Assembly: GCA_014380825.1 (NCBI GenBank)
Contig: JACMJD010000336.1
Span: 1-6,225, forward strand
DNA from: Phycisphaerae bacterium
GTDB taxonomy: Bacteria > Planctomycetota > Phycisphaerae > Tepidisphaerales > Tepidisphaeraceae
DNA: 6,225 nt
Direction of reading: 5' to 3'
How positions within the stretch are numbered: position 1 is the stretch's first letter; each line of letters opens with the position of its first letter. This document shows, piece by piece, positions 112-4,937 of this stretch. A model generated the notes under the pieces. The model ran no database searches. It was not told the origin of the DNA and was given only the letters and a program-made list of their open reading frames with translations. Both the position numbers and the translations under genes were made by a program.

Positions 112-137
112 ATCCTTCGCGGAGTACCGCTCAGGAT
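112..137. repeat. Interrupted palindrome at the gene junction, overlapping the next start codon
   Basis: ATCCT (112-116) pairs with AGGAT (133-137); a TC/TC mismatch follows, then GCGG (119-122) pairs with CCGC (127-130) around an AGTA loop. The right side ends in TCAGGATGACA, which I recognise from memory as the end of a short palindromic repeat common in environmental bacterial genomes (translated forms such as SFAALRMT). The element begins right after the upstream TAG stop and supplies the ATG of the next gene (136-138). GGAG at 121-124, 11 nt before that ATG, could act as Shine-Dalgarno but sits partly in the stem. Pairing is seen directly; membership of a mobile repeat family is inference. 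Confidence 0.6.
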
Positions 138-1752
138 GACACGGTTTTCTACGCTTCGAACACTTTTCAAACGTGCGCCGCTGATCGCGTTTGTCACGTC
201 GATCCTCGTTTGCGCGATCACCGCACTGCTCGCGCCGTTGCCCGCGCCGCAGTTCCACGATGAGTTTTCCTATCTGCTGGCGGGCGACACGTTCGCGCGA
301 GCAAGGTTGACCAACTCAACGCATCCGCTGTGGGAATTCTTCGAGACGTTTCAGGTTCTTCATCACCCGACGTACGCGAGCAAGTACCCGCCTGCACAGG
401 GAATGTTTCTGGCGCTGGGACAACTGATCGTCGGCGAGCCGATCGTCGGCGTGTGGATCAGCACGGCGCTGGCGTGCGCCGCGATCGCGTGGATGGCGGG
501 CGCGGTGCTGCCGCGCACGTGGGCGATGCTCTGTGGCATTCTTGCCGCGACGCATCCGCAGGTCCTCGATTGGAACTGGAGCTATTGGGGCGGATCGGTC
601 GCGCTACTCGGCGGAGCGCTGCTGATCGGCGCGACGCTGCGCCTGCGTCGTCGCGCATCGTGGAAGGATGCCGCGATCGCGGGAATCGCGATTTCCATCC
701 TCGCGAACTCGCGACCGCTGGAAGGCGCGATTCTTTCGGTGACGTGCGTGGGGTGGATGGCGCTCACGCCGCTTGCGGCGTCGCAGATCAGGCGATTCAC
801 ATCTATCGATCTGCGACGCCGCAAGCGGCAGGTCATCGGTGCGATCACGCTGGTACTCGCGATCAACTTCGCGTGGATGGGTTATTACAACTGGCGCGTG
901 ACCGGAAGCGCCACGACGCTTCCCTATTCGCTATACGAGAAACAGTACGCCCCGACGCGCCCGCTCGCGTGGTTGCCTCCACCAACTTCTCAACCGACTT
1001 ACCGCCACAGCGCGATGCGGGAGTTCTATTTGAACTGGGAGTTACCGAATTATCTTCGACAGCGTTCGCTCGGCGGATTCGTCGAGGCATCGCTTGGCAA
1101 ACTCTGGGACTTCGCGAGAGGTTTCGGACGCGCACCAACGCTCGCGCTCGCATTCATCGGGCCCCCGTTTGTGTTGCGACGATGGAAGTGGACGCGTATC
1201 GGTTTGCTCATCGTCGTTGTGTGTCTGCTCAACTCGCTCCCCGTGCTCACTTATTTTCCACACTACAGCGCACCGGTCGCACCCCTGATATTCCTCCTCT
1301 TCGCCACTTGCCTGTCCCGAGTTTGGTCGAGGGTCCTGTCCCGAGCTTGGTCGAGGGGCGGTTTCGCAATTCGACAGCGCTGGACATTACCTGGACGCGT
1401 TCTCGTCGCGCTCATCCTGCTCGGGCAATCGGTCGCGCTCGTGCATTGGATCATCCGTCGCGCGAATACCGACGCGACCAGTTGGAACTTTCTGCGACAA
1501 GCATTCGTCGACGAGCAGACCCGGGGAGATAGAAAAGTCCTCGTCTTCGTCCGCGCCGATCCCGGTTACTACGTTCACAATGAATACGTCTACAACTCCC
1601 CCGACATCAATAACGCGCCGGTCGTTTGGGCGCGTGACATGGGTTACGCCCGCAATCGTGATCTAATCGACTACTACGTTCAGCGCGGCGCGCGCGAGCT
1701 GATGCTTTTGGACAACGGCCGGCAGTTAATTCCGTATAATGAAACGAAATAA
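136..1752 (+). CDS. ArnT/PMT-like GT-C membrane glycosyltransferase
   Basis: A 538-residue polytopic inner-membrane protein with about 10-11 hydrophobic segments (near 14-34, 95-121, 128-142, 151-168, 178-191, 195-212, 233-250, 333-347, 353-373, 377-392, 419-440) and a soluble C-terminal domain of about 100 residues. The HDEFSYLLAGDTFA segment (41-54) places an acidic DE pair in the first periplasmic loop, where GT-C enzymes such as ArnT and protein O-mannosyltransferases keep their catalytic Asp. SKYPPAQG (82-89) and FPHYSAPVAPL (374-384) also look typical of this uncharacterised ArnT-like group. The family generally moves a sugar from a polyprenyl-phosphate donor to lipid or protein on the periplasmic side; the acceptor here is unknown. 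No other ATG lies upstream of the DE motif, so the start at 136 is preferred although it lies in a palindromic repeat. Residues 211-233 and 393-408 are encoded by repeats. It sits 20 nt before the radical SAM gene. Confidence 0.8.
   Translation: MTRFSTLRTLFKRAPLIAFVTSILVCAITALLAPLPAPQFHDEFSYLLAGDTFARARLTNSTHPLWEFFETFQVLHHPTYASKYPPAQGMFLALGQLIVGEPIVGVWISTALACAAIAWMAGAVLPRTWAMLCGILAATHPQVLDWNWSYWGGSVALLGGALLIGATLRLRRRASWKDAAIAGIAISILANSRPLEGAILSVTCVGWMALTPLAASQIRRFTSIDLRRRKRQVIGAITLVLAINFAWMGYYNWRVTGSATTLPYSLYEKQYAPTRPLAWLPPPTSQPTYRHSAMREFYLNWELPNYLRQRSLGGFVEASLGKLWDFARGFGRAPTLALAFIGPPFVLRRWKWTRIGLLIVVVCLLNSLPVLTYFPHYSAPVAPLIFLLFATCLSRVWSRVLSRAWSRGGFAIRQRWTLPGRVLVALILLGQSVALVHWIIRRANTDATSWNFLRQAFVDEQTRGDRKVLVFVRADPGYYVHNEYVYNSPDINNAPVVWARDMGYARNRDLIDYYVQRGARELMLLDNGRQLIPYNETK
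768..829. repeat. 22-bp perfect inverted repeat inside the glycosyltransferase gene
   Basis: The arm at 768-789 is the exact reverse complement of 808-829, separated by an 18-nt loop (790-807). Each arm carries at its outer end a smaller self-complementary 12-mer, GCCGCTTGCGGC at 768-779 and GCCGCAAGCGGC at 818-829. On the left this extends to the 16-mer ACGCCGCTTGCGGCGT at 766-781. The nested design resembles paired REP-type palindromes in head-to-head orientation. It is translated in frame as roughly residues 211-233 (PLAASQIRRF ... DLRRRKRQ), a basic stretch between two membrane segments, probably a cytoplasmic loop. A 22-bp perfect arm is far beyond chance in 6 kb. Confidence 0.85.
1311..1357. 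repeat. Tandem pair of 23-bp imperfect-palindrome repeats in coding sequence
   Basis: Two copies, 1311-1333 and 1335-1357, differ at one base (T/C) and have a 24-nt period. Each begins CCTGTCCCGAG and ends TGGTCGAGGG, forming a weak hairpin (CCCGA with TC-G-GG, GA bulged). The +2-shifted frame reads PVPSLVEG twice, a signature I associate from memory with the widespread family whose best-known form is CCTGAGC...GTCGAAGG. In the glycosyltransferase frame it adds two octapeptides, LSRVWSRV and LSRAWSRG (residues 393-408), just after a membrane segment. The period of 8 codons keeps the frame. Confidence 0.8.
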
Positions 1753-1772: not shown

Positions 1773-3335
1773 GTGTCTGAAATCGTCCTCACCACCTTCA
1801 ACGCCCGCTACGCGCACGCATCGTTCGGGCTGCGCTATCTGCACGCGAATCTGCGCAGGTTGCGCGATTTCGCGACGATTCTCGAATTTGAGATCAACAC
1901 CAAGCCGATTGATGCGATCGAGCGAATTCTCGCTCTTGACCCGCGCATCGTCGGCGTGGGCGTTTACATCTGGAACGCGCTGGAGTCGCTACAGCTTGTC
2001 GCGGAACTCAAGCGGATTCGTCCGGATATCACGATCGTCATCGGTGGACCGGAGGTGAGCTACGAAGTCGAGCAGCAGGAAATCTGTCGAATCGCCGATT
2101 ACGTGATTTGTGGAGAAGCGGATATCGCGTTCGCGAATCTGTGCGAGCAGATTCTGTCGAATCGGCGTCCGCTGATGCGGGTGATTCATGCGGAGCTTCC
2201 GCAGTTTGAAACGAAGGACATGCAGGCTGAAGCCTGCACGCCGGTGGAGCTTCCGTATCACCTCTACAGTGACGACGACGTCGCGCATCGGGTGATCTAC
2301 GTCGAAGCCTCGCGCGGGTGTCCGTTCAAATGTGAGTTTTGTCTCTCCTCTCTGGATGTTCCCGTGCGAAACGTTCCGCTGGATTCGTTTCTCGCCGCGA
2401 TGCAGCAGTTGCTCGATCGGGGCGTGAATCATTTCAAGTTCGTCGATCGCACGTTCAACCTGAATCTGAACATCGGCCGCTCGATCCTCGAATTCTTTTT
2501 GCAGCGGTATCGGCCGGGAATGTTTTTGCACTTTGAGATGATTCCGGATCGGTTGCCCGATCCCCTGCGGACGCCGATCAAAGCGTTTCCCGATGGCGCG
2601 CTGCAATTCGAGGTGGGCGTGCAGACGTTTAACGATGCGGTTGCGCACCTCATCAGCCGTCGACAGGACAACGCGAAGGTGGAACAAAACCTCACATGGC
2701 TGCGAAATGAAACCGGCGTACACGTGCACGCGGATCTGATCGTCGGGTTGCCCGGCGAGACAATCGAAAGCTTCGGCCGCGGGTTCGATCGGCTCATCGC
2801 GCTTCGGCCGCAGGAGATTCAGGTCGGGATGCTCAAGTGCCTTCGCGGCACGCCGATCGTGCGGCACGATGAACCGTGGGGCATGGTTTACAGCCCGCAT
2901 CCGCCGTACGAAATACTGCAGACGAAGCTGATCGATTTCGCCGCGATGCAGCGCATGCGACGCTTCGCGCGATACTGGGATTTGATCGCCAACAGCGGGA
3001 ACTTCGTCCAGACGACACCACTGATCTGGCGCGACGCGTCAGCATTCGAATCATTCGCCAAACTGAGCGAATGGCTGCACGCCCAGCTCGGCCAGACACA
3101 CGCGATCGCGCTGCCCCGGCTCGCCGAGCGCGTGTTTACTTATTTGTGCGAACAGGGCGGCCTTGATCGTCATTCGACCGCACAAATCCTCTGGGCGGAT
3201 TACAGCCGCGGGGCGCGGCGCGATGTGCCGGAGTTTCTACGCGCGCTCGTCGTCGCTCCGGATCGACGAACGCGCCTGGCGGCGCCGAAAAACATTCCGC
3301 GCCGCCAGGCGCGACATCAGATCAAACCACTCTAG
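1773..3335 (+). CDS. B12-binding-type radical SAM protein, DUF4080 family
   Basis: A 520-residue class B-like radical SAM enzyme of unknown reaction, presumably cytoplasmic. Residues 1-140 form the Rossmann-like B12-binding-type domain (IVGVGVYIWN 59-68, VIGGPEVSYE 89-98, VICGEAD 111-117). I see no DxHxxG cobalamin-ligand motif, so cobalamin, if bound, would not be held by that His. The radical SAM barrel follows, with the 4Fe-4S cluster motif CPFKCEFC (C183, C187, C190) and barrel strands QFEVGVQTF (278-286) and ADLIVGLPGET (320-330). The C-terminal region from about 345 (GMLKCLRGTPI 352-362, closing RQARH 511-515) looks like DUF4080. The start is GTG with no convincing Shine-Dalgarno, chosen because the family opens directly with a LTTxNARYxHxS-type strand (here LTTFNARYAHAS, residues 6-17). 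It lies 20 nt after the glycosyltransferase gene, likely the same operon. Two palindromic repeats lie inside it (residues 150-156 and 500-514). Confidence 0.88.
   Translation: MSEIVLTTFNARYAHASFGLRYLHANLRRLRDFATILEFEINTKPIDAIERILALDPRIVGVGVYIWNALESLQLVAELKRIRPDITIVIGGPEVSYEVEQQEICRIADYVICGEADIAFANLCEQILSNRRPLMRVIHAELPQFETKDMQAEACTPVELPYHLYSDDDVAHRVIYVEASRGCPFKCEFCLSSLDVPVRNVPLDSFLAAMQQLLDRGVNHFKFVDRTFNLNLNIGRSILEFFLQRYRPGMFLHFEMIPDRLPDPLRTPIKAFPDGALQFEVGVQTFNDAVAHLISRRQDNAKVEQNLTWLRNETGVHVHADLIVGLPGETIESFGRGFDRLIALRPQEIQVGMLKCLRGTPIVRHDEPWGMVYSPHPPYEILQTKLIDFAAMQRMRRFARYWDLIANSGNFVQTTPLIWRDASAFESFAKLSEWLHAQLGQTHAIALPRLAERVFTYLCEQGGLDRHSTAQILWADYSRGARRDVPEFLRALVVAPDRRTRLAAPKNIPRRQARHQIKPL
2221..2238. 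repeat. 18-nt palindrome in the radical SAM interdomain linker
   Basis: TGCAGGCT (2221-2228) and AGCCTGCA (2231-2238) are perfect reverse complements around GA. The CAGGCTGAAGCCTG core matches a short palindromic repeat I recall as frequent in Acidobacteriota and other environmental genomes. It encodes MQAEACT (residues 150-156), in the linker between the B12-type domain and the radical SAM barrel, where an extra few residues would be tolerated. The short length allows coincidence, so the repeat-family call is moderate. Confidence 0.6.
3271..3313. repeat. 15-bp perfect inverted repeat at the 3' end of the radical SAM gene
   Basis: CGCGCCTGGCGGCGC (3271-3285) is perfectly reverse-complementary to 3299-3313, with a 13-nt loop (CGAAAAACATTCC). 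It is translated as residues 500-514 (TRLAAPKNIPRRQAR) and ends 19 nt before the stop codon. It would form a very stable GC-rich hairpin in mRNA from either strand. No T-run follows on either side, so it is not a classical intrinsic terminator. Its place at the boundary of two convergent genes suggests 3'-end protection or blocking of read-through, or a mobile palindrome inserted at a tolerant C-terminus. Confidence 0.85.
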
Positions 3336-4859: not shown

Positions 4860-4885
4860 CATGAATAGTTTAGTCGCGAAAGAGG

Positions 4886-4937
4886 TTATCTCCCACACTT
4901 TATCTCCCAGACCTTATCTCTCAGACTTTATCTCCCC
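4886..4937. repeat. 14-bp tandem repeat, 3.7 copies
   Basis: Units at 4886-4899, 4900-4913 and 4914-4927 plus a partial unit at 4928-4937 follow TTATCTCCCAGACC with one to three changes each. On the purQ strand every unit reads (G/A)GAGATAA, so an unstructured purine-rich array lies 27-78 nt before the purQ start, probably in its promoter or leader. It also lies directly upstream of the TATAAT box facing pilT. The regular spacing could suit phased protein binding (14 bp is not a helical multiple) or slippage-driven length variation. Confidence 0.85.

What the first reader, a model, noticed from the sequence alone, without database searches (positions are those of the whole stretch)
768..829. 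22-bp perfect inverted repeat translated inside a membrane glycosyltransferase, with nested palindromes in each arm
A perfect 22-bp stem with an 18-nt loop has an expected count well below one in a million for a random 6-kb sequence. Each arm holds a self-complementary GCCGC-TT/AA-GCGGC core, so the element looks like two REP-type palindromes in inverted pairing. The frame stays open and the product is a basic loop between membrane helices, a site tolerant of added residues. The sequence facts are direct; mobility and insertion are inference. It may be a protein-coding palindromic element comparable in principle to Rickettsia palindromic elements.
Basis: partly seen in the sequence, partly recalled or inferred. 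Interest (0 to 1): 0.75.

Follow-up and report, generated by a model that had tools for sequence, protein, structure and literature searches.

The report
Translated palindrome in sugar-transferase loop
A bacterium, probably a soil planctomycete, carries a perfect DNA palindrome inside a membrane sugar-transferase gene, and unrelated repeat palindromes sit in the same floppy loop of distant cousins, so this loop looks like a place where small repeats settle and become protein.

Summary
A perfect 22-bp inverted repeat with an 18-nt spacer (768-829) is translated in frame, and each arm holds a smaller palindrome. It lies in a low-confidence loop between two helices of a GT-C-fold glycosyltransferase.

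Four homologues (61-76% identical) share the segment; two at 68 and 62% lack it. Relative to the window, arm residues are 49 of 56 identical, spacer residues 3 of 24. The nearest relative's spacer (P0001) fits the window spacer inverted (4 differences, P 0.0008) better than forward (9, P 0.4), hinting at template switching between the arms. A weaker form of the test gives only P 0.07.

Among 112 homologous genes (104 distinct), the only three strong inverted repeats (window, L091, L010) all fall in this loop. Those of L091 and L010 are unrelated, dispersed REP families (62 and 43 sites in their own genomes).

Best reading: an in-frame REP-dimer-like element, old and maintained. The window's own genome is not held and no other copy of its palindrome was found, so mobility is unproven; a local inverted duplication is the main rival. 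Intragenic REP dimers are already published.

The parts
136..1752 (+). GT-C-fold membrane glycosyltransferase gene (538 aa), host of the element; no Pfam or NCBIfam match at E 0.001
   Evidence: Foldseek to PglB, AftA, ArnT
768..789 (+). 5' arm of the perfect inverted repeat, encodes PLAASQI (plus the last base of the T211 codon)
790..807 (+). 18-nt spacer, codon-aligned, encodes RRFTSI; read inverted it would encode DRCESP with no stop
808..829 (+). 3' arm, encodes DLRRRKR (plus the first base of the Q232 codon)
766..781 (.). nested palindrome at the 5' arm, ACGCCGC-TT-GCGGCGT (like a REP half-unit)
   Evidence: sequence
818..829 (.). nested palindrome in the 3' arm, GCCGC-AA-GCGGC
   Evidence: sequence
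1311..1357 (+). second repeat insertion in the same gene: two head-to-tail units of 24 nt (CCTGTCCCGAGYTTGGTCGAGGG plus one base), in frame, encoding LSRVWSRVLSRAWSRG, absent from the 23 aligned homologues
   Evidence: D10; alignment; low pLDDT 408-415; related sites in 2 of 26 genomes

Best explanation
An in-frame, translated palindromic element of REP-dimer type sits in a permissive, probably cytoplasmic loop between two transmembrane helices of a GT-C glycosyltransferase. It entered before the split from P0005, replaced part of the native loop, and was lost again in the P0004/P0008 line. Since then it has been kept in frame. Replication template switching between the two arms keeps them alike and sometimes inverts the 18-nt spacer, so the loop peptide changes while the arms stay. 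Shown: structure, frame, distribution among homologues, arm against spacer conservation at protein level, and dispersed REP dimers in the same loop of two other lineages. Inferred: that this palindrome came from a dispersed family, one gain rather than two, and template switching as upkeep.
For: IR and frame. Shared by window, P0001, P0002, P0003, P0005; absent in P0004, P0006, P0007, P0008 (loop lengths). Of 112 homologous genes (104 distinct) only 3 carry an inverted repeat of score 12 or more, and all 3 map to window residues 208-232. L091's half-unit has 27+35 sites (its own two included) in its genome G169, 1 in G001 and 0 in the other 24 genomes of the order. L010's unit has 22+21 sites (its own included) in its genome G754, 9 in G757, 1 in G758 and 0 in three others. 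Both families are nearly confined to one genome among those searched, which can explain why the window's is unseen. Arms 49/56 identical to the window, spacers 3/24, ungapped flanks 45/96. P0001 spacer against the window spacer inverted: 4 differences, P 0.0008; forward: 9, P 0.37.
Against: No other copy of this palindrome was found: exact arm 0 in viral contigs; hairpin 0 in viral contigs and 0 of 392 phylum genomes; an 18-mer of the arm with one mismatch in 3 of 26 and 1 of 38 genomes, one site each; protein-word searches found only P0005 (which also missed P0001-P0003, so it is insensitive) and nothing. No GTAG or CGTC tag at the head of a half-unit. P0004 and P0008 have SRKR/GRKR where the 3' arm encodes RRRKR, so part of the 3' arm may be native. 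On the tree two independent gains cost the same two changes as one gain and one loss. Spacer inversion rests on one relative and possible codons only; when both spacers are treated as unknown codons P is 0.07, the inverted fit of P0001 to P0003 and P0005 is as good, and the other three spacers do not fit the window inverted (P 0.08-0.22); P0003 and P0005 resemble each other forward (P 0.003). Arm conservation could be protein constraint.
Confidence: 0.5

Rival explanations
1. A coding palindrome made on the spot: template switching copied the native basic segment (DLRRRKR, next to the helix) in inverted orientation a few bases upstream. No mobile element was involved.
For: No copies found. P0004/P0008 keep a basic SRKR/GRKR at the place of the 3' arm, and the net difference of 13 residues equals 5' arm plus spacer. 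Coding palindromes, and hairpins made by template switching, are published (PMC6649704, PMC8794818; abstracts).
Against: It does not predict a self-complementary core in each arm, nor that the same loop holds dispersed REP dimers in other lineages.
Confidence: 0.3
2. A protein-level feature: LAASQ and LRRRKR are kept because the loop peptide matters, and the DNA palindrome is a by-product.
For: Both arm peptides are conserved in five proteins; positive charges at a cytoplasmic helix end are expected (general knowledge).
Against: The loop is dispensable (P0004, P0008) and not conserved in the wider family. A perfect 22-nt match needs matching codon choice too; synonymous shuffles reach at most 13.
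Confidence: 0.1
3. An RNA hairpin in the mRNA that pauses ribosomes or guards the message, selected for its structure.
For: Very stable fold; arms conserved while the spacer varies.
Against: No Rfam family reached its gathering score in the window; the segment is missing in P0004/P0008; most of the other 104 distinct genes have no strong hairpin there.
Confidence: 0.08

Closest known systems
Intragenic REP dimers (GTAG/CGTC-tagged REPs), Di Nocera et al. 2013, PMC3733652
   Same: Two inverted hairpin units with a spacer inside an ORF, encoding about 20 residues. The paper reports intragenic dimers or groups encoding 20-30 aa, dimers whose spacers have similar lengths but different sequences, members in Planctomycetes, and different REPs at about the same site of recB in two Xanthomonas species (abstract, sections 6, 14, 15 and passages seen)
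   Different: No GTAG or CGTC tag at the head here; copy number unknown; host gene is a membrane glycosyltransferase
Rickettsia palindromic elements (RPE)
   Same: Palindromic DNA translated in frame inside genes
   Different: Different sequence and lineage; RPE occur in many genes of one genome (recalled; RPE-1, RPE-4, RPE-6 mentioned in PMC3733652); here no second copy is known
Coding palindromes of Nematomorpha mitochondria, PMC6649704
   Same: Perfect inverted repeat inside coding sequence
   Different: There both arms encode conserved protein regions and repeats reach 284 bp (abstract); here a dispensable loop
Template switching between inverted-repeat arms in yeast coding genes, PMC8604942
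   Same: Arm homogenisation and spacer inversion, as inferred here
   Different: Shown there between yeast strains (abstract); here inferred from proteins of different species

Membership tests
REP / BIME (repetitive palindromes in inverted pairs) | Short hairpin units, often as inverted pairs | tested here: met
   Nested palindromes 766-781 and 818-829 in inverted pairing
REP / BIME (repetitive palindromes in inverted pairs) | Many copies dispersed in the genome | not testable with these tools
   Own genome not held; no hairpin copy in relatives searched. Met for the unrelated palindromes of L091 and L010 in the same loop
GTAG- or CGTC-tagged REP superfamilies | Unpaired GTAG or CGTC at the head of the unit | tested here: not met
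   Neither precedes a half-unit in 760-840. A CGTC does occur at 779-782, but behind the core of the 5' arm and partly in its stem; stems (5-7 bp) and 2-nt loops differ from the 8-9 bp and 4-5 nt given for CGTC families. GTAG is present in the L091 and L010 units (sequences)
REP mobilised by RAYT | A RAYT gene in the genome, flanked by the REPs | tested here: inconclusive
   Own genome not held; Y1_Tnp PF01797, broader than RAYT, found in 14 of 14 genomes, among them genomes of the order that lack L091's REP; flanks not examined
Rickettsia palindromic element | Translated palindrome in several unrelated genes of one genome | tested here: inconclusive
   Protein-word searches: only the homologue P0005 among 11 candidates, none in another frame (1 candidate); low sensitivity, own genome not held
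GT-C glycosyltransferase (host gene) | GT-C fold with an acidic motif after the first helix | tested here: met
   Foldseek to PglB 5ogl E 2.6e-6, AftA 8if8 1.5e-5, ArnT 5ezm 1.7e-5, TM-scores about 0.4-0.5; nearly invariant H41 D42 E43. The catalytic meaning of the motif is recalled

The most novel reading that the evidence does not exclude
A self-maintaining, invertible coding segment: the identical arms let replication template switching flip the codon-aligned 18-nt spacer, so one gene can alternate between two loop peptides (RRFTSI and DRCESP in the window) without losing frame. This loop of the GT-C family would be a general landing site where unrelated REP dimers are turned into diversifying protein segments.
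Probability: 0.12. Interest if true: 0.75.

Novelty: new member of a known kind. Interest (0 to 1): 0.45.

Why it matters
It gives a traceable case of repeat palindromes becoming protein: one loop of one enzyme family, entered in separate lineages by unrelated repeats, with an old copy whose arms stay alike while its spacer changes. If confirmed with DNA of the relatives, it would show how repeat DNA and template switching together make new peptide segments in bacteria.

Tried and rejected
Copies of the window palindrome: exact arm in viral contigs 0; hairpin in viral contigs 0; 18-mer with one mismatch in two orders, 4 sites in 64 genomes, one per genome, so no second arm within one mismatch; hairpin in 392 phylum genomes 0; a looser hairpin in 26 genomes matched 2 genomes, no more than the reversed control (3 genomes). 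Close relatives of the gene in held genomes: at best 38-42% over most of the length, up to 50% over short pieces (one search saw 397 genomes drawn from a larger class, one search kept the best 80 of 101); one viral contig, 32%. A plasmid search with the PilT gene told nothing about kinship.

The hairpin 3271-3313 at the end of the radical SAM gene first looked like a second copy (LAAPK...IPRRQAR). Rejected: its 3' arm encodes a C-terminal RQxRH-like motif seen in 21 of 23 relatives' loci, so it is not an insertion.

Y1 transposase as a discriminator: rejected, present in all 14 genomes searched. PSP-containing peptides in the same loop of 7 sequences (L113, P0009, P0010, P0014, P0015, P0017, P0018) may be another translated repeat, but for the P rows no DNA was at hand and PSP also occurs elsewhere in 25 of 203 sequences; not counted. 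The inverted repeat in L095's loop scores only 11, a level that synonymous shuffles reach freely (78 of score 10-13 in five rounds, about 16 a round, against 19 observed, 17 of them distinct), so by score it is not evidence; only its dispersed hairpins speak for it.

Full report
What is there. The window has a 538-aa ORF at 136-1752 with a perfect 22-bp inverted repeat at 768-789/808-829 and an 18-nt spacer. It is translated as T-PLAASQI-RRFTSI-DLRRRKR-Q, residues 211-232. Each arm holds a smaller palindrome (766-781 and 818-829; sequence). Sixty order-2 Markov versions of the window reached at most 13 perfect pairs. The folded strand has -57.8 kcal/mol, z -9.1.

The host gene. No Pfam or NCBIfam family matched. 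An AlphaFold2 model from 24 sequences (pLDDT 85) matches GT-C glycosyltransferases in the PDB: PglB, AftA, ArnT. The palindrome covers the loop after helix 194-210 and the start of helix 223-256, with pLDDT under 50 at 215-218. The other stretches under 50 are 74-81 and 408-415; the latter lies in a second repeat insertion (below). That the loop is cytoplasmic is inferred from its charge and from the conserved motifs on the other side. The source is inferred to be a planctomycete: homologue P0003 bears the label BH09PLA1 from a soil metagenome and P0016 (44%) that of a Tepidisphaeraceae bacterium. PilT of the window is up to 84% identical to that of genomes in the order of G061, whose name the tools do not give.

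History of the element. In an alignment of 24 proteins, P0001, P0002, P0003 and P0005 (76, 73, 71, 61% identical to the window) have the same segment in the same register. P0004 and P0008 (68, 62%) and P0006 and P0007 (54%) lack it. Between the anchors G197 and Y251 the loop has 53 residues in the window, P0001 and P0003, 52 in P0002 and P0005, 40 in P0004 and P0008, and 44 in P0006 and P0007. The median is 47 over the 203 of 232 sequences that have both anchors; 11 of the 202 others are as long as the window or longer. The net gain is thus 13, 9 or 6 residues depending on the yardstick, less than the 20 that the palindrome encodes, so part of the native loop was replaced or lost. A tree of 28 proteins built without the loop puts P0004 and P0008 in a starred six-row set with four carriers, and P0005 outside it: two changes. 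One gain and one loss, or two gains, cost the same; the shared frame and arms make me prefer one gain.

Arms against spacer. Compared with the window, the four homologues keep 49 of 56 arm residues but 3 of 24 spacer residues; the 24 flanking residues give 45 of 96, ungapped (Fisher P 1.6e-10 for arms against spacer, too small because the rows are related). Within a dispensable loop this is odd for protein selection and natural for a DNA repeat. I then asked whether spacers match when inverted. The window spacer read backwards encodes DRCESP. P0001's GNCGSP needs at least 4 nt differences from the inverted and 9 from the forward spacer (P 0.0008 and 0.37 against random hexapeptides; 8 comparisons made). 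The others are undecided: P0002 7 and 9, P0003 8 and 8, P0005 8 and 10 for inverted and forward. With codons left open on both sides, P0001 against the window inverted has P 0.07, and P0001 fits P0003 and P0005 inverted equally well (3 differences each, P 0.07), while P0003 and P0005 resemble each other forward (3 differences, P 0.003) (all). Inversion of a spacer and homogenisation of arms are known products of template switching between inverted repeats (PMC8604942, abstract; PMC8794818, abstract and opening).

The same loop elsewhere. From 112 homologous genes with DNA (104 distinct) I scored all inverted repeats. Only three reach a score of 12: window (22), L091 (25) and L010 (20, 19). All three map to window residues 208-232. 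Three together by chance has a probability near 0.002. At score 10 or more there are 19, 17 of them distinct, 4 in this loop, the fourth being L095 (11). Five rounds of synonymous shuffling gave 78 of score 10-13 and none above, so only the top three exceed shuffles; for L091, L010 and L095 among the 16 distinct others the chance is about 0.04.

These are real repeats. L091's unit (GTAG-tagged by my reading) has 62 sites with up to 2 mismatches in its own genome and 1 in the 25 others of its order; the reversed control gives 0 there and 1 in G127. L010's unit (GTAG-tagged, heads facing) has 43 sites in its own genome, 9 and 1 in two of five others, controls 0. Each count includes the sites in the loop itself. 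The two hairpins of L095 have 7 and 15 matches with up to 2 mismatches in L095 plus 198 kb of its genome, of which two each are the loop's own site counted twice; the reversed control, run for the first hairpin, gives 0. So dispersed REP dimers have entered this loop in at least two other lineages. In G169 and G754 further copies also lie in long open frames, not checked for being real genes.

What was not found. No second copy of the window's palindrome turned up. Since L091's and L010's families are themselves nearly confined to one genome among those searched, this absence is weak evidence. The own genome is not held.

A second case in the same gene. At 1311-1357 two head-to-tail repeat units of 24 nt add 16 residues (LSRVWSRVLSRAWSRG) that none of the 23 aligned homologues has. 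The anchored stretch is 76 residues against a median of 63 in 210 sequences, with 5 others as long or longer. Related sites exist in 2 of 26 genomes of the order, G163 (5) and G169 (1), with up to 3 mismatches.

Compared with the known. REPs inside genes, dimers or groups encoding 20-30 residues, dimers with spacers of similar length but different sequence, and two different REPs at about the same place in recB are all in Di Nocera et al. 2013 (PMC3733652; outline with abstract, sections 6, 14, 15 and passages). So the kind is known. The window element lacks their tags at the head and cannot be filed in those superfamilies. Searches of the open-access library for REP, RAYT and Planctomycetes listed 2 papers, and for intragenic REP, REP sequences, coding regions and RAYT 4 papers; of these I looked into PMC3733652 only, so I make no claim that the planctomycete case is unpublished.

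Verdict. Real, non-random, shared by relatives and probably a REP-dimer-like element turned into protein, perhaps kept up by template switching. The rival of a local inverted duplication (0.3) stays open until the source genome is searched.

Noticed in passing
1311-1357: Tandem pair of 24-nt repeat units inserted in frame in the same glycosyltransferase, absent from the 23 aligned homologues.
   Followed up: partly
3271-3313: 15-bp perfect hairpin (13-nt spacer) inside the last codons of the B12-binding radical SAM gene; its 3' arm encodes a C-terminal RQxRH-like motif shared by 21 of 23 relatives' loci. Possibly a terminator overlapping the gene end before the convergent outer-membrane gene.
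   Followed up: partly
4881-4936: Tandem 14-nt units (TTATCTCCCACAC-like; D1) around the start of the PurQ gene on the minus strand.
   Followed up: no
L095 loop (glycosyltransferase homologue in G221): Pair of two different hairpins with GTGG-like outer ends in the same loop; both hairpin types recur in 198 kb sampled from that genome.
   Followed up: partly
P0009, P0010, P0014, P0015, P0017, P0018: The same loop carries PSP-containing peptides (such as RAPSPHPSPERTGG) that look like yet another translated repeat; no DNA was available.
   Followed up: no
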